From Natrarchaeobius halalkaliphilus (GTDB lineage: Archaea > Halobacteriota > Halobacteria > Halobacteriales > Natrialbaceae), in contig NZ_REFY01000001.1 of the NCBI RefSeq assembly GCF_003841485.1, positions 434,001 through 498,000 on the forward strand: DNA of 64,000 nucleotides, written 5' to 3'. Below the pieces are notes generated by a model. That model saw only the letters and a program-made list of their open reading frames with translations, was not told the origin of the DNA and did not search any database. Both the position numbers and the translations under genes were made by a program. Position 1 is the first letter of the stretch. Each line of letters begins with the position of its first letter. Positions 8,721-36,060 of the stretch are shown one piece after another.

Positions 8721-9384
8721 CGGTAGGTGTCTGTGTGTATTCGTGGCTCTGATTCGCCGCGTCGGCGGACGATACGGCCGTCGCGGGGTCGCGCCCCGCG
8801 GTCTCGTCGGTTCCGCGCGCGAGCGCCGTCGTGCCGGTTCGGGAGATCTCCCGGATGCCGAACTGCCCGAACGTCTCGATCGCCGCGTCGATCTTCTGGC
8901 GCGCGCCGGTGATCTCGAACGTCGCCGTCTCCGGACTCGAGTCGACGGTCTTTGCGTCGTACATGTCCGCGACGGCGGCGACCTGATCCGGGCGCTCGGC
9001 GTCGACTTTCACGAGCGCGAGCTCGCGACGCATCGCGTCGGACGCGAGTTCGCGCACGGAGATGACCGGAACCAGCTTCCGGAGCTGTTTTTTGATCTGG
9101 TCGATGCCGGGATCGGGCTCCTCGACGACCAGCGTGATTCGGGCGCGGTCGTCGGCCGTCGTGGGGCCGACGGTCAGGCTCTCGATGTTGAACTGCCGCC
9201 TCGAGAACAGGCCCGAGGCCTCCGCGAGCACTCCGGGTTCGTGTTCGACCAGCACGGAGATGACGGTGCGTCGGGGATCGTGGGTCGCTTCGATCTCGGG
9301 ATCGATGCGGATCCCCTGTTTGTTTCGCCGCCCCGCCGGCGTCGGCCGCTCTTCCGGCGGCGGCCCCTCGAGTCCGCGCTTCAT
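8713..9384 (-). CDS. ilvN: Acetolactate synthase small (regulatory) subunit
   Basis: A 223-residue regulatory subunit of acetohydroxyacid synthase with an N-terminal ACT domain ([22 protein letters not shown], about residues 42-63) and an IlvN/IlvH C-terminal domain ([26 protein letters not shown]). It binds the IlvB catalytic subunit and gives feedback control by branched-chain amino acids. I prefer the ATG at 9384 over the in-frame GTG at 9393 because a mini-ORF that begins at the ilvB stop ends exactly there with an ATGA overlap. The first ~30 residues are a charged haloarchaeal extension. Confidence 0.94.
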
Positions 9385-9440
9385 GCGGACCACCCCGTGG
9401 CTCGCGTACGGTCGGACGACGCCGTCGGTCCGACGGTCAT
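9381..9440 (-). CDS. Mini-ORF bridging ilvB and ilvN
   Basis: A 19-codon ORF (MTVGPTASSDRT...) whose ATG overlaps the ilvB stop as ATGA and whose own TGA overlaps the ilvN ATG as ATGA. This double overlap would let a ribosome that finishes ilvB pass through the mini-ORF and re-initiate at ilvN without a gap. The peptide has no recognisable motif. It may be only a coupling device. Whether it is translated is inference. Confidence 0.45.
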   Translation of the reverse strand: MTVGPTASSDRTRATGWSA

Positions 9441-11248
9441 AGCTGGTCCTCCGTCAGCGCGAACTGACCGTTGTCGCCGCCGCTTGGAACCATCGGGTAG
9501 ACATTCGCCTGGGGGTCGATATGCGCGTCGATCACGGACGGGCCGTCGTAGGCCAGCGCCTCGGTGACGGCGTCGGCGACGTCGTCGTAGTCGTCGATCC
9601 GGAAGCCCTGCGCGCCGAAGGCCTCCGCGAGCTTGTCGAACTCGGGCATCCAGCCGTAGTCCGACGCGGAGTGACGTCCCTCGAAGAAGGCGTCTTGCCA
9701 CTGGCGGACCATGCCGATGTACTCGTTGTTGAGGACGACGACCGTGATGTCCAGGTTCTCGCGGACGGCCACGGACAGCCCCTGTAGCGTCATCAGGAAC
9801 GAGCCGTCGCCGTCGATGCAGACGACCTCCTGATCGTCGGCGGCGGCGACCCGCGCGCCGATGGCGGCGGGAAGGCCGTATCCCATCGTCCCGAGGCCGT
9901 GACTCGAGACCCAGGTTCGCGGTTCGGTGTAGGTCCAGTACTGACAGGCCCACATCTGGTGTTGACCGACGCCGGTCGTGACGACCGCCCGGTCGCTCGT
10001 GGCCTCGTCCAGCGCTTCGACGATGAACTCGGGGCGAACCGGTTCGTCCTCGGGGGCGTCGTAGGCCATCGAGTAGTCGGATTTCCACTGCTGGCACTGG
10101 GCGCGCCACTTCTTCGCTTCGGGCGAGGCGTCGACGGCCTCGCCCAGCTGGTCGACGACCGTCGCGGCGTCGCCGACCAGCGGGTAGTCGGCGTGGATGT
10201 TCTTCGAAATTTCGGCGGGATCGATGTCGACGTGGATGATCTCGGCGTCGGGCGCGAAGGTCTCGATGCCGCCGGTCAGGCGGTCGTCGAAGCGCGTGCC
10301 GACGGCGATCATCGTATCGCAGTGCGTGACCGCCATGTTGGCGAAGCCGGTGCCGTGCATCCCCGCCATCTCCATGGCGAGTTCGTGATCCTCGGGGAAC
10401 GAGCCGATGCCCGGCATCGTCGTGACGACCGGGATCTCGTGTTCGGTCGCGAACGCCCGGCAGGCCTCGCTCGCCTCGCCCTTGATCACGCCGCCGCCGA
10501 GCAGCATGATCGGACGGGCGGCGTTCTCGACGCGTTCGGCCGCGGCCGCGACGATCTCCGCGTCCGCGCGCTCTTGGACCTCGTAGGTGTCCGGCACCCG
10601 CGGGCCGTCGGGCTCGCGGTCCGTCTCCCCGTTCGTGACGTCCTTCGGCAGGTCGACCAGCGTCGGTCCCGGTCGGCCCTCGCCGGCGAGCGCGAAGGCC
10701 TCGCTGACGTCGGTTCCGACCCGGTCGGGATCGGTCGAGAAGGTGTTGTCCTTCGTAACCGGCGTCGTGACGCCGATCGTGTCCGTCTCCTGGAAGGCGT
10801 CGTTGCCGACGAACTCCGTCGGGACCTGGCCCGTCAGGGCGATCATCGGGTCCGAGTCCATGTCGGCGTCCGCGATGCCCGTGACGAGGTTGGTCGCGCC
10901 CGGACCCGACGTCGCGAGACAGACGCCCGGCTCGCCCGAGACGATGCCGTAGGCGTCCGCGGCGTGCGACGCTCCCTGCTCGTGAGCCATCGTGATGTGG
11001 TAGATGTCCGAGTCGTAGAGGGCGTCGTAGACGGGCATGATCGCCCCGCCCTGGACGCCGAAGGCGTACTCGACGCCCGCGTTCTCGAGCGCGCGGATAA
11101 CCGACTCGGCGCCCGTCGTGACGGGCGTCGGCGTCGTCTCGGCGTCACTCGAGGCGGCCCCGTCGTCTCCCGACTCGTCGGCGTCGGTCGTCGTCTGGTC
11201 GTCGTGCTGTTCCTCAGTCGGCGTGACCGATGCTGCGCGTTCGCTCAT
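9437..11248 (-). CDS. ilvB: Acetolactate synthase large (catalytic) subunit
   Basis: A 603-residue thiamine-diphosphate enzyme that condenses pyruvate to acetolactate, the first common step to valine and leucine. After about 50 acidic disordered residues come the PYR domain (ALENAGVEYAFGVQGGAIMP, the catalytic Glu in AHEQGASHAADAYG and SGPGATNLVTGIADA), the central FAD-like domain and the TPP domain (GDGSFLMTLQGLSVAVRENL ... LNNEYIGMVRQWQ). The start overlaps a 20-residue upstream ORF (ATGA). The end is coupled to ilvN through a mini-ORF. All motifs look intact. Confidence 0.97.
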   Translation of the reverse strand: MSERAASVTPTEEQHDDQTTTDADESGDDGAASSDAETTPTPVTTGAESVIRALENAGVEYAFGVQGGAIMPVYDALYDSDIYHITMAHEQGASHAADAYGIVSGEPGVCLATSGPGATNLVTGIADADMDSDPMIALTGQVPTEFVGNDAFQETDTIGVTTPVTKDNTFSTDPDRVGTDVSEAFALAGEGRPGPTLVDLPKDVTNGETDREPDGPRVPDTYEVQERADAEIVAAAAERVENAARPIMLLGGGVIKGEASEACRAFATEHEIPVVTTMPGIGSFPEDHELAMEMAGMHGTGFANMAVTHCDTMIAVGTRFDDRLTGGIETFAPDAEIIHVDIDPAEISKNIHADYPLVGDAATVVDQLGEAVDASPEAKKWRAQCQQWKSDYSMAYDAPEDEPVRPEFIVEALDEATSDRAVVTTGVGQHQMWACQYWTYTEPRTWVSSHGLGTMGYGLPAAIGARVAAADDQEVVCIDGDGSFLMTLQGLSVAVRENLDITVVVLNNEYIGMVRQWQDAFFEGRHSASDYGWMPEFDKLAEAFGAQGFRIDDYDDVADAVTEALAYDGPSVIDAHIDPQANVYPMVPSGGDNGQFALTEDQL

Positions 11249-16108: not shown

Positions 16109-16816
16109 CTATCGCAGTTTCCGTTCGGCCTCCGAGAGATCCGCCTCCGTGTTCACATTCACCCGCCAGCCCTCGAGTTCGACCGTCTCGACGACTCCAC
16201 CGTGCTCTCGGAGGCGGGCGATCGCGTCCGGGAGTTCGTACTCGCCGCGATCCGATGGGGCGATCGCCCGACAGTGCTCGAAGATCGATTCCGGGAGGGC
16301 GTAGACGCCGGTCGTCACGAGCGTCGACGGCGGCTCGTCCGGCTTTTCGACGAGTTCGGTCACGGTTCCCGACTCGTCCGTGACGACGACGCCGGTCGTC
16401 CGCGCGACAGCCGGCGAGGCCCGCTCGACGAGCAACGCTGCGTCGACGTCCGACCGACGCCTGGTTTCGACGACGGACTCGAGCGACGTGCCGAAGACGT
16501 TGTCACCGTTACAGACGAGGACGTCGCCCTCGACCGCGTCCGCCGCCTGTGCGATCGCGTGTGCCAGGCCCTTCCGTTCGGGCTGTCGAACGTACCGGAT
16601 CGGCGCCTCACCGTAGCAGTCGCCGTAGTAGTCGACGATCTGGGCACCCCGATAGCCGATCACGACGACGATGACCGTGACGCCGACCTCGCACAGCCGA
16701 TCGAAACAGTGTGAGAGGATCGGACGGTTGTCGACCTCGAGCAATCCCTTCGGGCGGTCGCTCGTCAGCGGTCGGAGTCTGGTCCCCTCGCCGGCCGCGG
16801 GAACGATCGCGTGCAT
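16109..16816 (-). CDS. Sugar-1-phosphate nucleotidyltransferase
   Basis: A 235-residue NTP-transferase of the glucose-1-phosphate thymidylyl/uridylyltransferase type that makes an NDP-sugar. The signature AAGEGTRLRPLTSDRPKGLLEVD opens the protein, CNGDNVF carries the metal-binding Asp and ELVEKPDEPPS is the usual loop. I used the internal ATG at 16816 because it opens directly onto the fold; 9 more residues are possible from 16843. It is similar in layout to the AglF-like gene at 37987, so the region has at least two such activating enzymes. Confidence 0.9.
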   Translation of the reverse strand: MHAIVPAAGEGTRLRPLTSDRPKGLLEVDNRPILSHCFDRLCEVGVTVIVVVIGYRGAQIVDYYGDCYGEAPIRYVRQPERKGLAHAIAQAADAVEGDVLVCNGDNVFGTSLESVVETRRRSDVDAALLVERASPAVARTTGVVVTDESGTVTELVEKPDEPPSTLVTTGVYALPESIFEHCRAIAPSDRGEYELPDAIARLREHGGVVETVELEGWRVNVNTEADLSEAERKLR

Positions 16817-16965
16817 GGATTGTCGTTGTCGGTCTAGCTCCATGAAGTCGGTTGGTCGACACGCGTCTCGAGTCAGATATCAACCAGTTTAGTGAGATCG
16901 GTCTTCTACGGGTCGAGGACAACGACACCGGTTGTTTCATTACTGTTCTGCGTCGATGCCGGTAT

Positions 16966-18047: not shown

Positions 18048-18998
18048 ATGTCGACTGCCGACGATCTTTCCGTCCTTCACCTCGTGACCGCGAGGGAGGT
18101 CTTCTTCGATCAGCAGATCGAGACGCTCGAGGCGAAGGGCGTCGACTGCACGGTCTGCGTCGTTCCCGGTGCCGATCAGATCGACGGCGCGATGGGACGC
18201 GGTCGCGGCGTGACGGAGTACCTGCAGTACGTTCCGAAAGTTCGCCGGGCGCTCCGTCGCGGGGAGTTCGATCTCGTCCACGCGAACTACGGGCTGACGG
18301 CACCGTACGCGGCGACGCAGTTCCGATTGCCGATCGTGTTGACGCTATGGGGATCCGACGTCGTCGGCGTCGACGGCTGGGTGACGAAAAGCTGTGCGTG
18401 GCGAGCGGACGCGGTGACCGTTCGAAGCGAGGAGATGCGAGAGCTGCTGAGTCGGCCGGACGCACACATCGTCCCCAGTGGCGTGGACATGGACCGGTTC
18501 CGACCGATCGATCGGACGGCCGCTCGAGAGCGAGTCGGGTGGGAACTCGAGGAGACGCACGTCCTGTTTCCGTACTCGCCCGACTACGAGCGCAAGAACT
18601 ACCCGCTGGCCGAGCGGGTCGTGGATCGGGCTGGGACGGAGTTGGGGGAGGACGTGACGTTACAGACGATTTCGGGCGTGGCCCACGAGGACGTTCCGTA
18701 CTACGTGAACGCGGCCGACTGTCTGCTGTTGACCTCGAGACACGAAGGCTCACCGAACACCGTCAAAGAAGCGATGGCGTGTAACGTGCCCGTGGTCTCG
18801 ACGGACGTCGGTGACGTCCGAGAGCGACTCCGCGATGTAAAACCGTCGGCTGTCGGATCGAATGCCACAGAACTAGCAGAGTGTTTGTCGACAGTAATCG
18901 AATCCGAGGAACGATCCAACGGTCGAGAAATCGTTCGAGAGATCAGTTGGGACCGAATTGGCGAAAGACTCGTGAATATTTATCGAGCCGTGACGTAA
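18048..18998 (+). CDS. Glycosyltransferase family 4 protein
   Basis: A 316-residue GT-B fold glycosyltransferase. The C-terminal half has the GT4 donor-binding signature with two acidic residues (LLLTSRHEGSPNTVKEAMACNVPVV), and an N-terminal acceptor domain precedes it (FDLVHANYGLTAPYAATQFRLP). It lacks part of the usual N-terminal domain length (typical 350-400). It lies in the same direction as the next GT4 gene, with 79 bases between. It probably adds a sugar to a lipid-linked or exported glycan. Confidence 0.9.
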   Translation: MSTADDLSVLHLVTAREVFFDQQIETLEAKGVDCTVCVVPGADQIDGAMGRGRGVTEYLQYVPKVRRALRRGEFDLVHANYGLTAPYAATQFRLPIVLTLWGSDVVGVDGWVTKSCAWRADAVTVRSEEMRELLSRPDAHIVPSGVDMDRFRPIDRTAARERVGWELEETHVLFPYSPDYERKNYPLAERVVDRAGTELGEDVTLQTISGVAHEDVPYYVNAADCLLLTSRHEGSPNTVKEAMACNVPVVSTDVGDVRERLRDVKPSAVGSNATELAECLSTVIESEERSNGREIVREISWDRIGERLVNIYRAVT

Positions 18999-20587: not shown

Positions 20588-21313
20588 ATGTCACACATAG
20601 AGTTTCTTGGTATATCTGGGGCAGGAAAATCAACACTGATGAAAGAGTTACTGTCATATGATAATTATATGGGTGGTAAAGAATTGTATGACATTAGATA
20701 TTGGGGCCTGGATAATAGAGAGGTACTCGAAAACATATTAAGGATTTTAAATACTTCCCCAAAACCAATTCGAATGAAATTTGGAAGATTTATATATGAA
20801 TATGTTCTTCGTCCTCAGTTATTTATTAACTTCTTTAGTAGAAATACCGAATTTATAAACGAACTTGTTCCATATTTTGAACGTAGCTATGAGAAACGTA
20901 CTGAGGAAAAACTCCGAGGTTTCGCAAATGGTATTTCAAAATACGAGCTAGGAAAGCGAGTCAACCATCCAGCAGATTACATATGCCTCGATGAATGCTT
21001 TTATCACCGAACTCGAGCAGTTCGTCATGCGAAGGACCTCCCCAATGATTCGTATTTTGATGTAATGCCTACACCATCTATACTGATCTGGGTTGAACCT
21101 CCACCAAAATTAATATATAAGCGAAGAAAAGAACGCGATGGTAAGGAATTCTCCATGAACGCTATTAAAAGATCAAAGAAAATAAATGCAGTATTAGCTG
21201 AAAAAGCAATTGATAGAGGTTCAAAAGTAATTCAGGTGAAAAATGTAAAATCCCCTAAAGCCGAAGCCAATTACATCCACAGTGAAATAGAAAACCATCC
21301 TTCAAGTATATAG
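20588..21313 (+). CDS. P-loop kinase-like protein
   Basis: A 241-residue protein starting with a Walker A loop (EFLGISGAGKSTLMKELL) and a likely Walker B/catalytic region (DYICLDECFYHRTRAVRHAKD). ILIWVEPPPKLIYKRRKERDG resembles the base-recognition and lid region of nucleoside or small-molecule kinases. The AT content is high and codon use differs from the core genes, so it looks transferred. It may phosphorylate a sugar or other precursor in the glycan pathway; a sulfotransferase-like fold is less likely because the P-loop is a true GxxGxGKST. Confidence 0.7.
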   Translation: MSHIEFLGISGAGKSTLMKELLSYDNYMGGKELYDIRYWGLDNREVLENILRILNTSPKPIRMKFGRFIYEYVLRPQLFINFFSRNTEFINELVPYFERSYEKRTEEKLRGFANGISKYELGKRVNHPADYICLDECFYHRTRAVRHAKDLPNDSYFDVMPTPSILIWVEPPPKLIYKRRKERDGKEFSMNAIKRSKKINAVLAEKAIDRGSKVIQVKNVKSPKAEANYIHSEIENHPSSI

Positions 21314-21616: not shown

Positions 21617-22345
21617 GTGAAAGTGGTTATTACAATGGCCGGGAAGGGATCTCGGTTCAAAGACGCGGGCATATCATGTCCAAAGCATGAGGTTATCGTG
21701 GACGATCGTCCAATGTTCGACTGGGCTATGCAAAGCCTGAAATCGTTTTACGACGACGAATTCGTTTTCATCACTCAAGCGGCAGATTCTCCGAGTGAGT
21801 TCTTAGCGGAGCGTTGTGAAACCCTGGGAATTGACAGGTACGAAGAAGTTACGCTCACCGAGTACACCGACGGGCAAGCGTCAACGGCGCTGGCTGCTGA
21901 CGACAGTATCAATGACTCTCAATCGGTTGCGATATTTAACATCGACACATATGTCGAGGAAGGTAAACTCTCACCCGAAATTATCAAGGGCGACGGATTC
22001 ATTCCTGTTTTCGAAACGACCGGCGAACGATGGAGTTTCGTGAAAGAAGACTCCAAGGGGAACGTCGTAAGCGTCTCCGAAAAAGAAAAGATATCGGACC
22101 TCGCAACGGTTGGGTTCTATTATTTCGATCAGTGGTCGTATTTTGCTGATGCGTATGCGGAGATCGCGTCAGAGACCAAATCGAAATACGGCGAAACCTA
22201 CGTCGCACCGCTGTACAATTCTCTAATCGACAGCGGCGAATCCGTCGAAACACATTGTCTCGACGAGAGCGCCGTTCACGTCCTGGGGACGCCACAAGAC
22301 CTTTGCAGCTTCTATCCTGAATTCGATCCGAACAACCATCCCTAG
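21617..22345 (+). CDS. Nucleotidyltransferase family protein (capsule-type)
   Basis: A 242-residue sugar-nucleotidyltransferase-fold protein. MAGKGSRFKDAGISCPKHEV is the NTP-binding loop and VAIFNIDTYVEEG includes the metal-binding Asp. Start is a GTG, because the overlapping ATG is out of frame. It is followed after one base by the NTase-kinase fusion and then by a HAD-type gene, a three-gene set typical of capsule clusters in bacteria. It probably activates a phosphorylated precursor as an NDP derivative; the precursor is unknown. Confidence 0.82.
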   Translation: MKVVITMAGKGSRFKDAGISCPKHEVIVDDRPMFDWAMQSLKSFYDDEFVFITQAADSPSEFLAERCETLGIDRYEEVTLTEYTDGQASTALAADDSINDSQSVAIFNIDTYVEEGKLSPEIIKGDGFIPVFETTGERWSFVKEDSKGNVVSVSEKEKISDLATVGFYYFDQWSYFADAYAEIASETKSKYGETYVAPLYNSLIDSGESVETHCLDESAVHVLGTPQDLCSFYPEFDPNNHP

Positions 22346-22346
22346 C

Positions 22347-24047
22347 ATGAGCGACACTGACGATATCCTTCTGGTTCCTTCCGCCGTACTCGTCCCGGAC
22401 GAGCTACGCCTGGATGTGGGCTCAATTCCGACCGGAATGATCCCACTCAAGGGCAAGCCGATGATCGAACGAATTGCGGAGGCATACGAATCGACGCCCG
22501 TTTCTCGGATCGTGGCCGTTGGTGAATCCAGTGATGCTATTCGTGAATACGCACAACGGAGTGTCTACGATTGGCGCGTAATAGACGTCGGCGACACCAT
22601 CAGTGTCGGTGAAACGATACTGACGACGTTAGAACAATTGCCAAAAGCATCACTAGAGGGTTCGAAACTGTACATCAACTTTGCAGACACGTTAATCCAG
22701 CCGATACCCGTTTTGGACGGCCAGGACTACGTTTCCTACGAAGAAGTCGATCGAACGTACCGGTGGACGAATTTCGATATCGAATCGGACGCGATCGGTG
22801 CTGTAACACCGAAGAACAAGCTTAGCGGAACGTCGTCACCGGTTTTCGTTGGACAGTTTGGTATCACCGACGCAAGTGAATTTCGTGACGAACTCGAACG
22901 TGCTGTGACCGCTCGAAGCAGCCAACTCGATCCATTCTTCGCGGGTCTCCTGTCATATCTGTCCGAACGAGAATACGATTTGTTCAAGCCCGACACCTGG
23001 CTGGATGTCGGCCACCTCGATACGTTCCACCAGGCCAAAAAGCAGTTCTTGAACACACGATCGTTCAACAAACTATATGCAGATAACAAGAATACGATCA
23101 CGAAACGGAGCGACGATGTCGAGACGCTAATTAACGAAATAGAGTGGTACAATCAGATCCCAAACGACTTACAACCGTACTTGCCTCGTGTGTACGATTG
23201 GTCCACAAACGAGGACGAACCGTTCATCAAACTGGAGTACATCGGTTACCCCTCGTTAAGTGACCTTCAGTTGTACAGCGCCCACGGACAACACATCTGG
23301 AACGGCGTCTTCGATCGACTACTCGAGATGATCGAAGAGTTTCAACGAAATACGTTGACGATGCAAGATGGGGATATCGAATCCGCTCTCGAAACGATTT
23401 ACATCGAGAAGACGCGACATCGACTCGAACGGACGTACAACAGGGGGACGTTCACAGAACTGTTCGACTCGGATGGAGTTACGATCAATGGAGTGAACTA
23501 TCCGTCAGTCCGCGAAATTCTCGCTCAGCTACAACTGATAGCGGACAAGATCGGCCTCCTCGAAACCCGAACGCTTTCAGTTATCCACGGTGATCTCTGC
23601 TTCCCGAATATTCTGTACGATCCTCGAAACGGAATCCTCAAATTAATCGACCCTCGCGGGGAATTTGGTGATTTTACTATTTACGGTGATTCACGATACG
23701 ATCTTGCGAAGCTCCGCCACAGCGTCGTCGGTCACTATGAGCACCTCATTAACGATCAGTTCGACGTCTCGTACGATCCTGAAGAGGCGGCTATTTCGTA
23801 CCGAATTCATACCACGGAGGGTCAGGATCACCGGGAATCGTTGTTCGATTCGAAGCTTGCATCCCATCCCGAGATCGACCTCGGAACGATAAAGTTCATC
23901 GAGGCGCTGCTCTTTCTCAGTATGGTACCGCTCCACGCGGATCGGCCCGCGAGGCAACAGTGTATGATCGCTCAGGGAATCCAGAAAATCGCTCCGTATA
24001 TGGAGTCAGCCACGACCGAAACGTTCGAAAGCCGTGAACACACATGA
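22347..24047 (+). CDS. Nucleotidyltransferase-kinase fusion protein
   Basis: A 566-residue two-domain protein. Residues 1-230 form an NTP-transferase-like domain (GSIPTGMIPLKGKPMIERI, LYINFADTLIQPI). Residues about 280-540 form an aminoglycoside-phosphotransferase/choline-kinase domain with the Brenner motif VIHGDLCFPNILYD and the metal Asp in LKLIDPRGEFGDFTIYGD. The order of domains suggests phosphorylation and nucleotidyl transfer of the same small molecule, as LicA and LicC do as separate proteins for choline. The usual LAAGxGxR loop is altered to LVPSAVLVPDELR, so the N-terminal domain may have lost activity. It lies one base after the previous gene. Confidence 0.85.
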   Translation: MSDTDDILLVPSAVLVPDELRLDVGSIPTGMIPLKGKPMIERIAEAYESTPVSRIVAVGESSDAIREYAQRSVYDWRVIDVGDTISVGETILTTLEQLPKASLEGSKLYINFADTLIQPIPVLDGQDYVSYEEVDRTYRWTNFDIESDAIGAVTPKNKLSGTSSPVFVGQFGITDASEFRDELERAVTARSSQLDPFFAGLLSYLSEREYDLFKPDTWLDVGHLDTFHQAKKQFLNTRSFNKLYADNKNTITKRSDDVETLINEIEWYNQIPNDLQPYLPRVYDWSTNEDEPFIKLEYIGYPSLSDLQLYSAHGQHIWNGVFDRLLEMIEEFQRNTLTMQDGDIESALETIYIEKTRHRLERTYNRGTFTELFDSDGVTINGVNYPSVREILAQLQLIADKIGLLETRTLSVIHGDLCFPNILYDPRNGILKLIDPRGEFGDFTIYGDSRYDLAKLRHSVVGHYEHLINDQFDVSYDPEEAAISYRIHTTEGQDHRESLFDSKLASHPEIDLGTIKFIEALLFLSMVPLHADRPARQQCMIAQGIQKIAPYMESATTETFESREHT

Positions 24048-24054
24048 GTAATAT

Positions 24055-24438
24055 ATGAACCCTGACGAACACAACCGCCTCGTCGTCGACGTCGATGGTG
24101 TACTAGTAAAGAAGGACTCCGACACGGAATATGCGAACCGCGAGCCCCATGAGGACGTCGTCGAACGGCTTCGCGAATACGCAGACGACGGATTCTATAT
24201 CATACTCTATACTGCGAGAAACATGCGGACGCACGAGGGGCGTATCGGAAAGATCAACGCCGAGACGGCACCGGTGTTAAACGAGTGGCTCGACGAACAC
24301 GATATTCCGTACGACGAAATCCACTACGGAAAACCGTGGTGTGGTTATGATGGGTTCTATGTTGACGACAAGGCAATTCGGCCATCGGAATTTACTGAAT
24401 TGTGTGTGGAAGAAATACGCGAGGATATAATAGAGTGA
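24055..24438 (+). CDS. HAD-superfamily protein, capsule biosynthesis type
   Basis: A 127-residue HAD-fold protein: motif I LVVDVDGVLVKKD with the nucleophile Asp, motif II in IILYTARNMRTHEG and a late acidic motif in YDGFYVDDKAIRPSEF. It lacks a cap domain. It follows the NTase-kinase fusion by 7 bases. In bacterial capsule clusters similar small HAD proteins sit with nucleotidyltransferases, so it probably removes or transfers phosphate in making an activated precursor. It is still GC-moderate; the following genes are more AT-rich. Confidence 0.85.
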   Translation: MNPDEHNRLVVDVDGVLVKKDSDTEYANREPHEDVVERLREYADDGFYIILYTARNMRTHEGRIGKINAETAPVLNEWLDEHDIPYDEIHYGKPWCGYDGFYVDDKAIRPSEFTELCVEEIREDIIE

Positions 24439-28314: not shown

Positions 28315-29110
28315 GATCAGCGAGACTTTTGACCATCTGGGAGGAATGCGTTGATCCAGTCACTAGCGAAGCTCAGTTGGTGACTCAACCGGAAAAATGT
28401 ATCGGTGAGGAACGCGCTAGAATGGTCTTGGTCTGCGAAGATCTCTGGTAAGATCTCGCGCTTCAGGTCTTTCCATAGCGATTCTATGGCGTCTAATGTC
28501 GGCGAATACAGCGGAATGAAGGCGAACCGCTGCCGAGTTCGTCGGCCTGTTCCTGCGTAAGTTTCGCATGGTGGGAGCCGTAATCGTCGGCTACGATCAG
28601 AATCCGGTTGGACGGATTCTGCTCGCGAATTTCTTCGAGTGCCTCAACGATCGTCTCCTTGGCCAACCGCTTCTTAAATGAGATTACGCTCTGGCCAGTC
28701 AGCGCATAGAAGTTGATCGACCGCTTGGGAAACGTACCAGTGGTTTCTCGATCGTCACTGTCCGGTCAAACGGCCACATCTTCTGGAAGTTTTCAAACAG
28801 CTGTAGACACGGCTCATCGAAAAAACCCGAACACAACGGGTCTTCTTCCTCTTCTGCTGCCTCGTCTTCTTTGTCTGTCTCCTCGTTGTCATCGAGCGCC
28901 TGGAGAGGCGCTCGGCGAGAATCTCGTCTGTATCGTCGGGGCGGCGTGGTCCATCGGCCGTGGTTGGGCGTAATTCATCCCCGCTTCTCGGAGTTTCCGA
29001 CTTAGGTGGGCTGGATAGTACGTGACGTCGTAGTGATCTTCGATGAACGCGTGAATCTGATTCGGAGTCCACGGTTGCCCTCTTCGAAAACGTTACAGAG
29101 TTCATCCCAC
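28315..29110 (-). pseudogene. Decayed IS630-family transposase
   Basis: Frameshifted remnant. Pieces in different frames align with the intact IS630 copy at 32730-33836: WDELCNVFEEG, INFYALTGQSVISFKKR, EEIREQNPSNRILIVADDYGSHH (catalytic Asp), FAFIPLYSPTLDAIESLWKDLKRE (second Asp/Glu) and the end DWINAFLPDGQKSR. At least two frameshifts are needed. The N-terminal ~100 residues are missing where the IS5 element begins. Confidence 0.85.
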
Positions 29111-30041
29111 TGCTCTATTGAAAACGCCATACGGAAGCGGGATTAGAGTGTTTCACTGAGACCCTCGATGTTGTGGATAGCAAACATAAGGACGATTTCA
29201 CGAAACTGTCGATACCAGGCTAGTGACCGAACGTCAGGGCCCAGAGACCGCTTCGTCGAGGAATAGGACGTTTCTGCCATCCATCGCTGATTGTAGCCGT
29301 TCGTGCGTATCAGCGCGTTGTGAAGATGTGGACCGAGCGTTGAGCCACTTCGTAAGAGAAGTGGCTCGATGCTCTCGGCATAGTATTCGTATCGTATCGG
29401 CCAGTTATGAAAAGCCTTATCAGCCGCGACAGAGACCAACTCGTCCGCATTCCGGCGGACGAGCTTCCGCCCGAGTATCGTGTCATGACGCCATTTGACC
29501 GAGCAATGAACATCAAGCACTGCCAGTGACTCAACATCCGTCAGTGTCGTCACTTTCAGGGTCTGGATCGTGCGATCGACCCGTTTGAGGTAGTAATGGG
29601 ACGCATGTCCACGCTCGAAAAACGTGCTGTCGAGGGCCACGTGTCCGGAATTCGGGTGTTGCTGCGCGGAGACGCGCAGCAACGCTCGCCAGACGCGCAT
29701 TGCGAACCGATCGAACGAGTACCAGAACGTCGTTGGGTCTGGCAGTGCCTCCGGCAACAAGTCCAGCAGCTCACAAATCGCCGGCATCAACCTGAGCCGA
29801 TCGATCACTTCCGTATACGTCCAACCTTCTTCCAATCGAAGACAGTGAACGACGACGTGGACCCAGCGGGGAAGCCCGCCAGAGGCGGGTTTCCCCGCAT
29901 ACGACCCAAACGCTTGTTTAGCCAGCCGTCGACAGATCCGAGTGAAGTCGAGGAGGTTTATTGCCATATAATTCGCTTCTCGACTTCATCTCGTTACCAA
30001 GCACAGCATACGCCCCGACGCAGTCGTCCATTTTCAATAGA
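29111..30041 (-). mobile_element. IS5-family insertion sequence
   Basis: An element of about 931 bases carrying one transposase. Its ends are perfect 15-base inverted repeats, CTGCTCTATTGAAAA at 29111-29125 and its complement at 30027-30041. I cannot find a matching target duplication, perhaps because flanking sequence was lost. It truncates the IS630 remnant. Confidence 0.7.
29143..29967 (-). CDS. IS5-family transposase
   Basis: A 274-residue transposase with an N-terminal DUF772-like helical domain (WVHVVVHCLRLEEGWTYTEVIDRL) and the DDE nuclease: first Asp in HVALDSTFFERG, second Asp in VSVAADKAFHNWPIR and the late Glu in RWMAETSYSSTKRSLG. The reading frame is complete, so the element may be active. 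The start codon lies about 75 bases inside the right-hand inverted repeat. Confidence 0.92.
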   Translation of the reverse strand: MAINLLDFTRICRRLAKQAFGSYAGKPASGGLPRWVHVVVHCLRLEEGWTYTEVIDRLRLMPAICELLDLLPEALPDPTTFWYSFDRFAMRVWRALLRVSAQQHPNSGHVALDSTFFERGHASHYYLKRVDRTIQTLKVTTLTDVESLAVLDVHCSVKWRHDTILGRKLVRRNADELVSVAADKAFHNWPIRYEYYAESIEPLLLRSGSTLGPHLHNALIRTNGYNQRWMAETSYSSTKRSLGPDVRSLAWYRQFREIVLMFAIHNIEGLSETL

Positions 30042-30186
30042 GCAGATCGAAGAACCACAGAGGATCCACCAGACACGAGAAGCATGTTACGTCACTAAAC
30101 TGAGGTGTGGCCCTTAACTAGAGACGAATACACATGCCACTTCACTTCCTCAACTCGCCTTGTGAAGTACTGATAGTGTTTCTAAA

Positions 30187-31086: not shown

Positions 31087-32725
31087 ATAATTCAGCGCTC
31101 TTGTGTAGCACTTTGTTTATCTCACAGCGTAGATTTAATAGCGTATCTGAGCGCTTCTTTCCTCGGCTTTCGTAGTAATTCTGGTCGAAGTTCAAAGGCA
31201 CGGGATACTGTGTGGGTTTATCCTTCGAGATGCTCGATGTGGCGAGAGCCACGCTCGTAGCAGTGATCTGTGGCTCTCGCAGTTTTGACGTGGACATTTT
31301 TGTCCGCGTATTCACCGTCGACATTGACGACGTAATCGCGCTCGAATGCGGTATCCTTGTTGAGTGGAACATAGGCACGAAATCCAACAGTATCGATGAT
31401 CAATGGCTCGTTCCCCGATTTGCGAGAAAGATCCGAATCATCGACAAATTTCGCGGGGAGCATATACCGGTTGCTGATGCCACGATCGACGATTGTAAAC
31501 ACCGGTGGTTTGTCCTGTTTTTGTGATCCTCGTCCGCGCGTAGGGAGACCACGCAAGCGTGACCGGCCATCCCGCTCGTGGCCTTTCATTCCCGCAGAGA
31601 GGTAGACTTCGCCAATCTCGACCGAGCTAACGAGGGTGAGCGAAACCTTCTCGGGCACCTTCGTGAAACTAATGGAGACTCGTGTTAAAGTGGAGATACG
31701 CGTAAATTGGAAGCAGCCACTTTCTAAGCGCAATCTTCAAATGGGTGAAGATCGTTCCCGTCTTGTTGTTGAACGTGCAGTCGCAATTCTTGCAAAGATA
31801 GCGCTAAAGGTGTCTATAGCTGCCATTCTTGACCGCATGGTCAGAACGGCAGTGGGAACAGGAACTCTGTTACGCCGGAAAATCTGCTGTAGCAGGTCCG
31901 CTGTAACCGATTGGTCGTGTCCCAAACTCGTCTAGAGTCGTAACTGACTCCTGTGGAAACAGGGTCACCTCTGGTACCTACCCCGAAGTGACCCATGCAC
32001 GCCACAATCGACGCGCAATTCACAGTTAGTCTCGACCCAGACAAAACGCTACCGCTTGCCACGCTCGCTGAATCTCTTACCGAGATTCAGCTCGAGGCCA
32101 CTATCCTCGAGGAGATCGTCAGAAGCCTCGACGAGCGCCTCGTCGAGGCGTATTGCGGGGAGAAACACGCGCGCGGAAACGGCGACCGCCGTTTCCAGCG
32201 CGCTGGCACCACGACACGAACAGCCGTTACAACTGCTGGAGAACACGAATTCACTCTCCACCACGTCAAAGATACCGCTGCTACTGAGGACAATCCAACC
32301 TACTTCCGTCCACTCGAGGATCTCGTCGAATTCGACGGACAGCGCATCTATCAAGAGGATGTTTCGCTCCAGAGTACCGACCTCGCTACGTCGCTCAGCT
32401 TTCGTGATGCCGTCGCCCACGGCGACGGCTTCACTCCGATGCCTTCGAAAACGACGATCAACCGCCGAGTCCGTGAGTACGGCAGCAAACTCGGTGACTT
32501 CGTTCGTGATCGGCTTCCTGGGACGAACGCAGACACTGTCGTTCCTGACGGAACGAAGTGTCACAGCCAGGACGATCACTGCACGTACCACGACGTCAAC
32601 GTCACCCTCGGACAGACCACCGAGGAAGACACGGAAACGACGCTCTTAGACGTCAATCTCAACGATTCTTGGGATGATACAGCCGAGACTCTCGAGGAGA
32701 ACGAGGCGGTCACTGACGACGCGTA

Positions 32726-33879
32726 GTGGTTAACGTAACTTCTTGATGAATTTGCTGAGATGGTTTTCTATCCACGAGCCTGCGAAGCTCAGTCGGTTAG
32801 TGAGGTTCGTGAAGATTCTATCGAGGAGGGCGCGGTACTCGTCCGCGCCCTCCACGATCAGGGGCGATGATTCCCATTTGAGACTCTTCCAGACCGGCTC
32901 GATTGGATTAAGATGCGGTGAGCCGACGGGAAGAAAGATGAGGTCGATCCCAAGTTCGTGGGCGCGTTTCCGCGTGTGCGCACAAATGTGTGACGAGAAG
33001 TTGTCCAAGACGAGCAGAATCCGCTGGCTCGGATTCTGCTCGCGGATCTCCTCGAAACACGCGCAGATCCGTTCTTTTTCTTGATTCAGAGGAAACTGAA
33101 GGACGCTCTCACCGTTGAGCGCATAGAACCCGGCCGCTGGTGTATCGATTTTCACCAGCGGCCGGGTGATTGTCGGCTCGCTCACCGTGTAGAGTCGCTG
33201 TGAATTGTCCCATGGTTGCGGATGCGAGATATCGAAGAACCCGATAGTTGTTCCACCGTCCGTCCGAATATCGTCGTCAACCGTCCATTCCTCATCACCG
33301 TCGTCCTCAGGTTGCTTGTTGTGAGGCTCATCTTTCTTATCCTCGGCGAACGCGTCGGAAACGCGTTCGTCGAGGATTTCGTCAGCGTTCTCTGGGCGGT
33401 CTGGCCTCTCTGTACGCGGAATCGCGTACGAGAGGCCAAGATCATCCAACAGTCGCGGGATGTAGTTTGGATGGAATTCGATGTCAAATTCTTCGTTCAG
33501 GAGGTGCTGAATCTCCTGTTTCTTCCACGGTTCGCCGTCTTCGAGGAGGTCAAGAAGACGCTCGCGCTCGTCTTCGCCGAGCTTCGGGGGACGTCCGTCC
33601 CCGAAGTTCGGGGTGAGTTTCCCGAGTCCACCTTCATTCCAGCGCTTCGCCCAGAGACTCCCGGTTGATTGAGACATTCCAACATCATCGGCTGCATCTT
33701 CGAGTGTTGCGCCCTTGTACAGCCGTTTGATGAAGGTAAGCCGCTTGCTCACCTTCTCGTCGTCAGTTTGTGTGAGTAAGCGGTCGAGATCGTCCTCACT
33801 GAGGTGACGGACGATCTCTTTTTCTCGTCCCGTCATTACTCTCTCAACTCAGGGTACACCTAAATCTTCTGTGACTCAC
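32726..33879 (-). mobile_element. IS630-family element with TA target duplication
   Basis: 1154 bases flanked by TA at 32724-32725 and 33880-33881, the IS630/Tc1 target rule. The ends are short imperfect inverted repeats (both begin GTG after the TA, with matching T and AC further in). It carries one complete transposase on the minus strand. Confidence 0.9.
32730..33836 (-). CDS. IS630-family transposase
   Basis: A 368-residue protein. The N-terminal half has an HTH pair (RLTFIKRLYKGATLEDAADDVGMSQ ... GRPPKLGEDERERLLDLLEDG). The DDE catalytic core follows: GFFDISHPQPW region for the first Asp, RILLVLDNFSSHICAH for the second, and FLPVGSPHLNPIEPVWKSLKW for the Glu. The acidic linker EDKKDEPHNKQPEDDGDEEW is a haloarchaeal adaptation. 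It is complete, and a decayed relative lies at 28315-29110. Confidence 0.95.
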   Translation of the reverse strand: MTGREKEIVRHLSEDDLDRLLTQTDDEKVSKRLTFIKRLYKGATLEDAADDVGMSQSTGSLWAKRWNEGGLGKLTPNFGDGRPPKLGEDERERLLDLLEDGEPWKKQEIQHLLNEEFDIEFHPNYIPRLLDDLGLSYAIPRTERPDRPENADEILDERVSDAFAEDKKDEPHNKQPEDDGDEEWTVDDDIRTDGGTTIGFFDISHPQPWDNSQRLYTVSEPTITRPLVKIDTPAAGFYALNGESVLQFPLNQEKERICACFEEIREQNPSQRILLVLDNFSSHICAHTRKRAHELGIDLIFLPVGSPHLNPIEPVWKSLKWESSPLIVEGADEYRALLDRIFTNLTNRLSFAGSWIENHLSKFIKKLR

Positions 33880-34549
33880 TATACGGTCGTCAGTGACGCC
33901 GAGAACGCGCTCGTCGATGCGTTCGAGAATGGTGACCGATCTCACCAGCTCGACCTCGTTCACGTCGATCGAACGCTCGGGTACAAGCTCTGGAAAGACG
34001 ATGCGTTTCCGCTCTCCGAGCGGAAAGCAATCGTCTCTGGCGTTACGAATGATCTGTTCCATCTGAAGAACTCTGTCGCATTCCATGCACCGAGGAATGA
34101 GCGTTTGGCGATCCGCGAGCGGATCGACCAAACGCTCGAGAACCTTCGGAAAGAAGCCTGGAGGTTAGAGCACCAACACTCCCCAAAAGCAGCGGCGTAC
34201 CTTCGGGAATGGGCGGAAGCAACCGTGACGTTCGCGGAGTTCGCGCTGAACCAACAGCAGGTTCCGTGGACATCAAACGTGGTCGAACGAGCCATGGGTG
34301 AAGTTTCGAAACGGTGTAAGAATCAATGGATGAGGTGGTCAGAAACAGGGCTAGAGTCGCTTCTCTGGTTGAATCTGGTGCAGTACGCTGATCCCGAGCA
34401 GTTCGCGGCGTTCGCCGACGAACTGCTCGAGCGGTCAGCCAAAACAGCCATCACAATGGAGGTGTCAACTGAAGCTACCAGAGGCAAACTCTAGACGACT
34501 TTGGGACGGGACCAACCGATTTCGGCCCAAACATCTCTAGCGGAATCAT

Positions 34550-34736: not shown

Positions 34737-35930
34737 TTACAGATCATTGGGATGATGTCTAGTATTATATGTATTCATGAAATGCTTTCCTCGTAAATCC
34801 TCTGGGAGAGTATCTTTATTAAGTGCTTGAGTGTAGTGCTTGTGAAGATCAAGTTCTTTCGTCTTGCGCTCTGTTCTTATGTCCGGTGAACTGTCTCCCA
34901 TAAGTTGTTGAAACCGATCATAGACCCCATTCGCTAACACGTCTACATTGTGTCCCAGGACCTTCATCATTTTCTCCCGGCCATCGAGATCAGTAAACTC
35001 AACAATATCTCGAGTGCTCCGTCCGAGTGAGCTCGTTGAGACGCCGTAGTACCACTTCAGTTCCTCGTCAAATTGTGCGTAGTAGCCAGCAATGTCGTCG
35101 AAAAGTGTGTCCCGATCCCGAAGGTGGTCCGTCAGTAACTCGTCGATGTATTCCCCTTCAGTCAGTCCGTGTTCGTCGAGGTAATACGCCTGGAGCGACT
35201 TTCCCTGTCCTGGACCGAAGTCCTCACGAGCGATGTGAACCTGTGCGTACTTTGGATTGTACGTCATCGGACGAACCCGGCGTCCCGCTCGTAGCGTGGG
35301 TTCACCGTCCCAGAGGACTTCCTCCGATCGGTTCGAGTAGTGCCAGATGCTTCCCCATCCGAACGCGACGAGACACACCATCGGTAGTAGCCGATGCGAG
35401 TGGATCCCTGGGGGATACTCGAGTAATTCGCGTTCGAAGAGGCCCGCGGACCGACAGTCGGTGGCATTAAAGAGAAGAAACTGGTCCATGAAATGCCCAG
35501 GCGGATACTGTTCCAGAAATTTCTCTGTACTCGTTTTGAACGCTACGGAGGCGTCACGTTCGTCCATCGAATCGATAAGCGACTGTAACCCTTCTTCCGA
35601 GAGCGGCCAGGCATCGGAGTGAAGGTGCAAGACGTGATCGACCTCGTCACACGAGAGGGCTCCTCGAATCGCGGTTCGAATAGTATTGTTGACTCTGAGC
35701 AGAAAATTCACTCGTTTCGATCGACCGGCTATCGATTCATCGGCATCGATTTGTGCACCCTGTTCAAAATGGTCGATTTCCGAGCTTAGATCCGACACCT
35801 TTTCGTGAGCATTCGGGTGATTCGAACAGACTGAAACGAAGTATTCGTCTTCCCAGTTGTTCCGAACGATATCCAGTAAGACACCGAGGTCCTCGAACTT
35901 GTCGTAAAGGGAGACGGATACACCGATCAT
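34737..35930 (-). CDS. Glycosyltransferase-like protein of the glycan cluster
   Basis: A 397-residue protein from the ATG at 35930. The N-terminal part looks like a GT-A nucleotide-binding fold (IGVSVSLYDKFEDLGVLLDIVRNN), with HVLHLHSDAWPLSEEG at about residues 100-115 in the place of a DxD-type metal motif. FNATDCRSAGLF and HSHRLLPMVCLVAFGWGS follow. No membrane segment is seen. A TATA-like TTTATAG at about 35955-35961 places the transcript start near 35930, supporting this start over 35963. Family uncertain; a sugar transferase acting in this locus is the best reading. Confidence 0.65.
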   Translation of the reverse strand: MIGVSVSLYDKFEDLGVLLDIVRNNWEDEYFVSVCSNHPNAHEKVSDLSSEIDHFEQGAQIDADESIAGRSKRVNFLLRVNNTIRTAIRGALSCDEVDHVLHLHSDAWPLSEEGLQSLIDSMDERDASVAFKTSTEKFLEQYPPGHFMDQFLLFNATDCRSAGLFERELLEYPPGIHSHRLLPMVCLVAFGWGSIWHYSNRSEEVLWDGEPTLRAGRRVRPMTYNPKYAQVHIAREDFGPGQGKSLQAYYLDEHGLTEGEYIDELLTDHLRDRDTLFDDIAGYYAQFDEELKWYYGVSTSSLGRSTRDIVEFTDLDGREKMMKVLGHNVDVLANGVYDRFQQLMGDSSPDIRTERKTKELDLHKHYTQALNKDTLPEDLRGKHFMNTYNTRHHPNDL

Positions 35931-36060
35931 AGGTCTGAGTCGCTGAGCGACCACTATAAACATATTGAACGTAGAGGGGACCCGAAAACGAATCAGAGGT
36001 GAGATTTCGTTCCGATCAAATCAAGATCGGAATCAGATTTGGAACTGGCAGTCCTGCGGT

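What the first reader, a model, noticed from the sequence alone, without database searches (positions are those of the whole stretch)
21617..24438. NTase, NTase-kinase fusion and HAD protein form a compact precursor-activation module
Three adjoining genes combine a nucleotidyltransferase, a fusion of an NTase-like domain with a choline/aminoglycoside-kinase domain, and a small HAD protein. This is the toolkit to phosphorylate and CDP- or UDP-activate a small molecule (LicA/LicC logic), perhaps a non-sugar decoration of the archaeal glycan. The altered NTP loop in the fusion suggests division of labour with the upstream NTase.
Basis: partly seen in the sequence, partly recalled or inferred. Interest (0 to 1): 0.5.

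Follow-up and report, generated by a model that had tools for sequence, protein, structure and literature searches.

The report
Fructose-type sugar-activation module in an archaeon
Three neighbouring genes of a salt-loving archaeon, plus a fourth one nearby, resemble the gene kit needed to put fructose on the E. coli K4 capsule, which suggests a shared and apparently undescribed way for microbes to turn an everyday sugar phosphate into an activated surface sugar.

Summary
In detail: 21617-24438 encodes an intact nucleotidyltransferase (NTase), a fusion of an altered NTase-like domain with an APH-fold kinase, and an EcbF-like HAD phosphatase. The altered loop is not local decay: 49 of 49 aligned fusions have it. 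A separate NTase was found around 97 of 103 altered-loop fusions and around 0 of 32 with an intact glycine loop, so "division of labour" is well supported. The choline/glycerol reading is not. The same trio lies in an E. coli K4 capsule locus, and published deletion arms show that kfoE, needed for fructosylation, is this fusion. I infer that HAD, kinase and NTase turn a central sugar phosphate, most likely fructose 6-phosphate, into a nucleotide sugar. A fourth gene, a putative glycosyltransferase (34737-35963, minus), occurs in 5 of 5 haloarchaeal genomes found with the trio; one of them and a Chloroflexota bin share the same four-gene order. The sugar in this archaeon is unproven: the haloarchaeal clade is separate from KfoE, and C. 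jejuni HS1 makes fructose branches with no such trio listed.

The parts
21617..22345 (+). stand-alone nucleotidyltransferase (pyrophosphorylase), 242 aa, intact loop MAGKGSRF...PK, NIDT and EK motifs
   Evidence: PDB 4evw E 2e-33; G9, R13, F14, P22, K23, D110, E155, K156 invariant in 9 of 9; 36% to the K4 NTase
22347..24047 (+). KfoE-type fusion, 566 aa: altered NTase-like domain (residues 1-235) and APH-fold kinase (236-566)
   Evidence: (27% over 571 columns to K4 KfoE, E 2e-54)
22374..22445 (+). altered NTP loop of the fusion (residues 10-33, VPSAVLVPDELRLDVGSIPTGMIP): no GxGxR followed by PK
   Evidence: none of the 49 printed rows shows the motif; D114 invariant in 49 of 49 (its metal-binding role is inferred from the NTase fold)
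23052..24044 (+). kinase domain with HGDLCFPN and IDPRG motifs, K253, E264
   Evidence: fold
24055..24438 (+). EcbF-like HAD phosphatase, 127 aa, with DVDGVL, TAR, GKPWCG and VDDKAIRP motifs
   Evidence: TIGR01689 156.9 bits, under cut-off 162; PDB 1xpj E 1.2e-44; 49% to the K4 HAD
34737..35963 (-). fourth module gene: putative glycosyltransferase without a Pfam family (408 aa); near the trio in relatives, about 10 kb away here
   Evidence: (no Pfam match at E up to 1; one relative weakly GT2, E 0.019)

Best explanation
The three genes, with the displaced fourth gene at 34737-35963, are an archaeal version of the kfoE-type capsule module. They make a nucleotide-activated sugar for a surface glycan out of a central sugar phosphate, most likely fructose 6-phosphate. 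Proposed route: the HAD removes the 6-phosphate, the APH-fold kinase phosphorylates the anomeric hydroxyl, and the stand-alone NTase couples the sugar phosphate to an NTP, giving an NDP-fructofuranose; the reverse order of the first two steps (a 2,6-bisphosphate intermediate) is equally possible. The NTase-like half of the fusion has lost the NTP loop and probably binds or channels substrate or serves as a scaffold. The fourth gene is the likely transferase. Shown here: gene order, conserved catalytic residues, the relation between loop and separate NTase, and that K4 kfoE is this fusion. Inferred: every reaction, the sugar in this archaeon, and the transferase role.
For: (1) The kfoE deletion arms printed in PMC7429809 match the K4-type locus L108 without mismatch and abut the fusion ORF 9270-10838; the locus holds the K4 chondroitin synthase (1449 bits to PDB 2z86); deletion is stated to give non-fructosylated chondroitin. 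(2) All three window proteins match the K4 trio along nearly their whole length: 27%, 36%, 49%. (3) Separate NTase in 97 of 103 altered-loop fusions, 0 of 32 with intact glycine loop, 34 of 46 kinases without the N-domain; within viral and phage records alone 9 of 12 against 0 of 31. (4) Serratia phage X20 has, in one run of genes, an arabinose-5-phosphate isomerase, an intact-loop fusion and an EcbF-like HAD (50.2 bits, cut-off 162); RB69's related fusion was proposed to help make UDP-arabinose (PMC6024577 passages). (5) A transaldolase lies within the held DNA of 31 of 46 kinase-only loci, all 31 viral; the one tested, from S-SKS1, matches PHROG transaldolase with 160.6 bits and fructose-6-phosphate aldolase with 30.3, under its cut-off. 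(6) The top two kinds in the Foldseek list for the kinase are methylthioribose kinase and N-acetylhexosamine 1-kinase, both anomeric kinases (recalled). (7) A KdsD-like isomerase was found in 1 of 103 altered-loop loci (L094, opposite strand); no other isomerase was searched for. (8) The fourth gene is in 5 of 5 haloarchaeal genomes found with the trio.
Against: C. jejuni HS1 makes fructofuranose branches, yet its published 11-gene locus lists no such trio; the 849-aa HS1.08 was named the fructose transferase and HS1.10 is listed as unknown (PMC7901785 passages), so another route to a fructose donor may exist. In the tree the haloarchaea plus an Anaerolineales form their own clade, apart from the KfoE clade, so the sugar may differ. 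The E. coli O20/O137 copy groups with KfoE, and the O20 repeat is, from memory only, a ribose-galactose polymer; the O78 repeat, also from memory, has no fructose. The kfoE phenotype does not separate activation from transfer. The kinase fold does not single out a substrate: APH, LicA, glucosamine kinase, maltokinase and fructosamine kinase all lie within Z 15.6-18.0. Altered-loop loci were mostly searched over wider flanks (up to 10 kb) than viral ones (4 kb); the counts are not corrected for kinship. No biochemistry of this module appeared in the passages I read.
Confidence: 0.55

Rival explanations
1. Same module logic, but the archaeal clade activates a pentose (ribose 5-phosphate or arabinose 5-phosphate) to an NDP-pentofuranose.
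For: Haloarchaeal fusions form a clade apart from KfoE; a distant phage module carries an arabinose-5-phosphate isomerase and arabinosylated DNA is reported for that phage group (PMC6024577, PMC13390438, passages); Foldseek puts methylthioribose kinase first for the kinase.
Against: A KdsD-like gene was found in 4 of 181 loci, none of them haloarchaeal. The window HAD carries KPWCG..GFYVDD as the K4 HAD does (27 of 76 HADs by my pattern have KPWC), unlike the X20 phage HAD.
Confidence: 0.25
2. One reading: LicA/LicC-like phosphorylation and CDP-activation of choline, ethanolamine or glycerol.
For: LicC 1jyl/1jyk and LicA 4r77 are among the fold matches.
Against: No choline-kinase family among the Pfam hits listed at E up to 1 (HMMER's filters drop most matches above about 0.1); sugar and aminoglycoside kinases match the fold as well or better; the one phenotype found for the family is a sugar; free choline or glycerol would not need a dedicated phosphatase (inference).
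Confidence: 0.07
3. The fusion is itself the fructosyltransferase, as the literature calls KfoE; the altered GT-A-like N-domain transfers the sugar.
For: KfoE is described as a fructosyltransferase (PMC7925653 and PMC10609508 passages); NTase and GT-A folds are related (recalled).
Against: The N-domain matches NTases in the 50 rows shown by each program; the C-terminal half is a kinase with intact catalytic residues; the fusion is shared from archaea to E. coli while the recurrent transferase-like neighbours differ between loci.
Confidence: 0.07
4. Aminoglycoside resistance or another detoxifying kinase.
For: APH motifs.
Against: Standing company of NTase and HAD, in annotated cases inside capsule, O-antigen and glycan loci.
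Confidence: 0.01

Closest known systems
E. coli K4 capsule genes: kfoE with its HAD and NTase neighbours (L108:8899-11566)
   Same: All three proteins match along nearly their whole length; same altered loop; KPWCG-type HAD; set among glycan genes
   Different: Order HAD-fusion-NTase in K4, NTase-fusion-HAD in the window; other neighbouring genes; window proteins 27-49% identical; sugar unknown
T4-like phage sugar modules (RB69 ORF53_52c, Serratia phage X20)
   Same: NTase-APH fusion; in X20 beside an EcbF-like HAD
   Different: In X20 the fused NTase loop is intact, there is no separate NTase in the held DNA, and an arabinose-5-phosphate isomerase is present; the proposed role is DNA modification
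EcbF/BcbF capsule biosynthesis phosphatase family (TIGR01689)
   Same: HAD motifs; matched over model positions 2-117 of 126; PDB relative 1xpj
   Different: Score 156.9, under the curated 162
Bacterial GDP-heptose route HddA-GmhB-HddC (recalled)
   Same: Same three chemistries: anomeric kinase, HAD phosphatase, NTase
   Different: GHMP kinase instead of an APH-fold kinase fused to an altered NTase domain
LicA/LicC
   Same: Shared folds
   Different: Other substrates; LicA not fused; no HAD (recalled)

Membership tests
kfoE-type capsule module | Fusion of altered NTase domain and APH kinase, aligned along the protein | tested here: met
kfoE-type capsule module | Adjacent EcbF-like HAD and separate intact NTase | tested here: met
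kfoE-type capsule module | Gene needed for fructosylation of a glycan | not testable with these tools
   found only for K4
TIGR01689 EcbF-BcbF | Score over the curated cut-off 162 | tested here: not met
   156.9 bits; 0 of 8 genomes over the cut-off; the K4 HAD passes with 193.4
TIGR01689 EcbF-BcbF | HAD residues D12, D14, T53, K93, D104, D105 | tested here: met
   invariant in 8 of 8 (catalytic roles recalled)
APH-fold kinases (PF01636) | Pfam gathering score 23.2 | tested here: not met
   19.4 bits
APH-fold kinases (PF01636) | Fold and catalytic residues | tested here: met
LicA/LicC | Choline-kinase family match | tested here: not met
   none among the Pfam hits at E up to 1
LicA/LicC | Activity on choline and phosphocholine | not testable with these tools
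   no assay
Active NTP_transferase (stand-alone gene) | GxGxR...PK loop, metal Asp, over the Pfam cut-off | tested here: met
   (26.3 over 21.2)

The most novel reading that the evidence does not exclude
A cross-domain pathway, not seen in the papers I could search, that makes nucleotide-activated fructofuranose from fructose 6-phosphate with a phosphatase, an anomeric ketose kinase carrying a non-catalytic NTase domain, and a separate NTase. It would explain the fructose donor of the K4 capsule, turn KfoE from a transferase into an activating enzyme, and predict fructosylated surface glycans in haloarchaea, made by a new glycosyltransferase family.
Probability: 0.4. Interest if true: 0.75.

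Novelty: new variant of a known kind. Interest (0 to 1): 0.55.

Why it matters
It ties an archaeal gene trio to a genetic phenotype in E. coli and makes a concrete prediction for how fructose is activated for capsules, a donor that none of the papers listed by my searches on it (listings, plus passages of some) was seen to describe. It also shows a clear evolutionary swap: where the fused NTase loop is altered a separate NTase is nearly always near, and where the glycine loop is kept none was found. The fourth gene is a candidate new glycosyltransferase family.

Tried and rejected
Choline/glycerol activation: considered first and dropped, for lack of a choline-kinase match and because of the K4 fructose phenotype. 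A KdsD-like isomerase as a standing partner: found in only 4 of 181 loci; other isomerases were not searched for, though none stood out among the neighbour families printed. WavE and another recurrent transferase-like family as relatives of the fourth gene: profile comparison gave no match, nor did one single protein. PDB search with the fourth gene's profile: 0 matches. Pfam scans of 20 further window proteins: transferases, transposases, an ABC transporter, housekeeping enzymes and several without a match. Papers: searches for V. cholerae core genes and for E. coli O-antigen and K52 structures gave nothing usable; passages of PMC10018396 and PMC11419355 held no structure that helped.

One search read the wrong column of the HMMER table and showed no hits; it was corrected and not used. 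In one search four loci (L209-L212) that my pattern had called altered were moved by hand to the intact-glycine-loop group, because their loop reads GRGVRF...SK; six more of that group also lack the PK proline-lysine pair in my pattern. The six altered-loop loci without a separate NTase are L060, L065, L091, L157, L181 and L185; L060, L065 and L157 lie at or near the end of the DNA held, and the L091 ORF begins upstream of the domain. The counts include near-identical viral contigs and several Enterococcus copies. L103 was left out as a duplicate of L022. Only the best 80 of 375 genome relatives and 80 of 141 viral relatives were held.
Full report
What is there. They lie in an AT-richer stretch (about 18-39 kb, GC 0.39-0.56 in 3-kb blocks; 0.61-0.68 in the blocks just outside) with glycosyltransferases at 18048 and 19078 and transposases at 29143 and 32730. 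The genome is haloarchaeal: one relative in the same order, G023, has a contig of the same length (266,234) as the Halobacterium sp. TGN-42-S1 contig that gave L022.

Each part. The NTase has an intact GKGSRF...PK loop; G9, R13, F14, P22, K23, D110, E155 and K156 are invariant in 9 of 9 aligned proteins, and its best solved relative is V. cholerae 4evw (E 2e-33; organism from the title). The HAD keeps D12, D14, T53, K93, D104 and D105 in 8 of 8 and matches PDB 1xpj (E 1.2e-44) and TIGR01689 at 156.9 bits, just under its cut-off of 162. The fusion is predicted with high confidence (pLDDT 94.1, pTM 0.91). Residues 3-243 have the NTase fold (Z 23.3 to GlmU, rmsd 2.6, 221 aligned). The kinase half, folded alone (pLDDT 93.8), has the APH fold; Foldseek ranks 5-methylthioribose kinase and N-acetylhexosamine 1-kinase first, but in the VIA-align list APH enzymes, glucosamine kinase, LicA, maltokinase and fructosamine kinase all lie within Z 15.6-18.0. 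Kinase residues K253, H414, G415, D416, N421 and D435 are invariant in 49 of 49, and E264 in at least 90%.

The altered loop. None of 49 aligned fusions (the window and 48 of the 80 loci) shows GxGxR followed by PK in the N-domain; at the position of the lysine the six letters listed are P, S, A, N, T and G, covering 48 of 49, while D114 is invariant. Over all loci held, 103 fusions have an altered loop (91 in cellular records, 12 in viral or phage records): a separate NTase was found in 97 and a HAD in 84. Another 32 fusions keep the glycine loop (31 viral or phage, 1 cellular): a separate NTase was found in 0 and a HAD in 28. Of 46 kinases without the N-domain, 34 had a separate NTase and 32 a HAD. 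Fisher's exact P is 2.7e-25, uncorrected for kinship. Cellular loci were mostly held with up to 10 kb of flank and viral ones with 4 kb; within viral and phage records alone the contrast is 9 of 12 against 0 of 31. The simplest reading is that the separate NTase does the coupling wherever the fused domain cannot.

Distribution. Of 292 haloarchaeal genomes, 4 (the window's included) carry the fusion at E below 1e-200; in a set of 391 there were 5. A scan of genome contigs gave 375 relatives, of which the best 80 were kept, from many bacterial phyla, Thaumarchaeota and Lokiarchaeota. In six loci the NTase and HAD are read in one ORF (L069, L070, L072, L085, L086, L092), which again links them. 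Annotated bacterial copies sit in capsule and O-antigen loci.

The link to fructose. E. coli SCU-115 locus L108 holds the trio among K4-type genes; its 686-aa protein is the K4 chondroitin synthase (1449 bits to 2z86); 20 of 5,426 E. coli genomes hold at least 80% of this region. The two 50-base arms used to delete kfoE (PMC7429809, passages read) match L108 without mismatch at 9220-9269 and 10839-10888, directly either side of the fusion ORF 9270-10838. So kfoE is the fusion. Its deletion is stated to give non-fructosylated chondroitin (PMC7925653, passages; the original report, Liu 2014, was not read). The literature calls KfoE a fructosyltransferase and lists kfoB, kfoD and kfoG as unknown (PMC10609508, passages). 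Its domains argue for activation instead. The window proteins match the K4 ones at 27%, 36% and 49%.

Phage parallels. Serratia phage X20 carries, in one run of genes, an arabinose-5-phosphate isomerase, an intact-loop fusion and an EcbF-like HAD (50.2 bits, under the cut-off). RB69's fusion was proposed to take part in UDP-arabinose synthesis (PMC6024577, passages), and the pathway was still called not fully characterised in 2026 (PMC13390438, passages). A homologue in Shewanella phage Thanatos, TH1_060, is likewise discussed for pentose activation, while another protein there was shown to be a UDP-xylose pyrophosphorylase (PMC12838424, passages). In viral loci with a separate kinase, a transaldolase lies in the held DNA of 31 of 46 kinase-only loci; the S-SKS1 one matches PHROG transaldolase (160.6 bits) and, under its cut-off, fructose-6-phosphate aldolase (30.3 bits). 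Both facts fit a route that starts from a sugar phosphate, and fructose 6-phosphate needs no extra isomerase.

The fourth gene. A 408-aa protein at 34737-35963 (minus) has relatives next to the trio in G028 (L102) and near it in G125 (L104), and between HAD and fusion in G300 (L142) and in an Anaerolineales bin (L023), the last two with the identical order HAD, fourth gene, fusion, NTase. In G023 an intact copy lies about 26 kb from the trio, with a remnant of 57 model positions beside the HAD. Of 292 haloarchaeal genomes 5 carry it: the 4 with the fusion plus G117, whose main copy lacks the first 35 model positions and which has no TIGR01689 HAD and only an 18.7-bit fusion match. G300, outside that set, has it too. 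So 5 of 5 trio genomes carry it, and 1 genome has it without the trio; the chance of 4 of 4 in the 292 is 1.7e-8, with the caveat that the profile was built from three of these genomes and L023. Among the bacterial loci held, L023 is the only clear relative. It has no Pfam match; one relative weakly matches GT2 (E 0.019), and it is unrelated by profile to WavE and to another recurrent family. A transferase role is an inference from the invariant D117-A-W in HLHSDAWPL and from co-occurrence. In the window no remnant was found next to the HAD; the intervening transposases suggest rearrangement.

Against this reading. C. jejuni HS1 has fructofuranose branches but no such trio in its published 11-gene list; the 849-aa HS1.08 is called the fructose transferase and HS1.10 is unknown (PMC7901785, passages). 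I could not inspect either. The haloarchaeal fusions form a clade with an Anaerolineales (99), apart from the KfoE clade (quick tree, SH-aLRT support only). The O20/O137 copy groups with KfoE (100), and I recall a ribose-containing O20 repeat and an O78 repeat without fructose; these are recollections, not tested. So fructose is the leading but not the only candidate, with pentoses next.

Novelty. The listings of my ten paper searches, and the passages I read, show no paper that joins kfoE to a nucleotide-sugar activation trio or describes an NDP-fructose route for capsules; several listings were cut to the best rows and subscription journals are mostly missing from the library. The enzyme classes are known and the arrangement resembles heptose activation (recalled), so I rate it a new variant of a known kind.

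Noticed in passing
window 18000-39000: AT-rich island with two IS-like elements: transposase 29143-29967 between 25-nt inverted repeats at 29100-29124 and 30031-30055, and transposase 32730-33836 inside a 39-nt inverted repeat pair at 31900-31938 and 34488-34526; these may have moved the fourth gene away from the trio.
   Followed up: partly
window 16109-16843 (-): ORF whose first residues show a canonical intact NTase loop (PAAGEGTRLRPLTSDRPKG), probably an ordinary sugar nucleotidyltransferase.
   Followed up: no
window 20588-21313: P-loop kinase-like protein just upstream of the trio, with no match in the stretches compared around the trio in L102, L103 and L104.
   Followed up: no
L007 (G041): A distant haloarchaeal NTase-APH fusion with an intact loop, behind a HAD that looks like KdsC, with a CDP-glycerol glycerophosphotransferase-like gene nearby (names by eye).
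   Followed up: partly
L115 and related viral loci: Synechococcus phage S-SKS1 has a separate kinase, HAD and transaldolase in a row, behind an NTase-like protein annotated 3,4-dihydroxy-2-butanone 4-phosphate synthase, apparently a fusion: a sugar-activation module of unknown purpose.
   Followed up: partly
L069, L070, L072, L085, L086, L092: NTase and HAD in one ORF, in three thaumarchaea, a Lokiarchaeote, a Kaiserbacteria bin and a Devosia bin.
   Followed up: partly
L107 (O78) and L110 (O20/O137): E. coli O-antigen clusters carry the trio although the repeats I recall contain no fructose; an acid-labile residue may have been missed in the structures.
   Followed up: no
L112: Enterococcus phage Planchet has an EcbF-like HAD (annotated polynucleotide kinase) and an intact-loop fusion near a pyrimidine hydroxymethylase, so probably a DNA-modification sugar module.
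   Followed up: partly
PHROG phrog_1238: This family is labelled phosphoheptose isomerase but matches two EcbF-like HAD proteins, so the label looks wrong.
   Followed up: no
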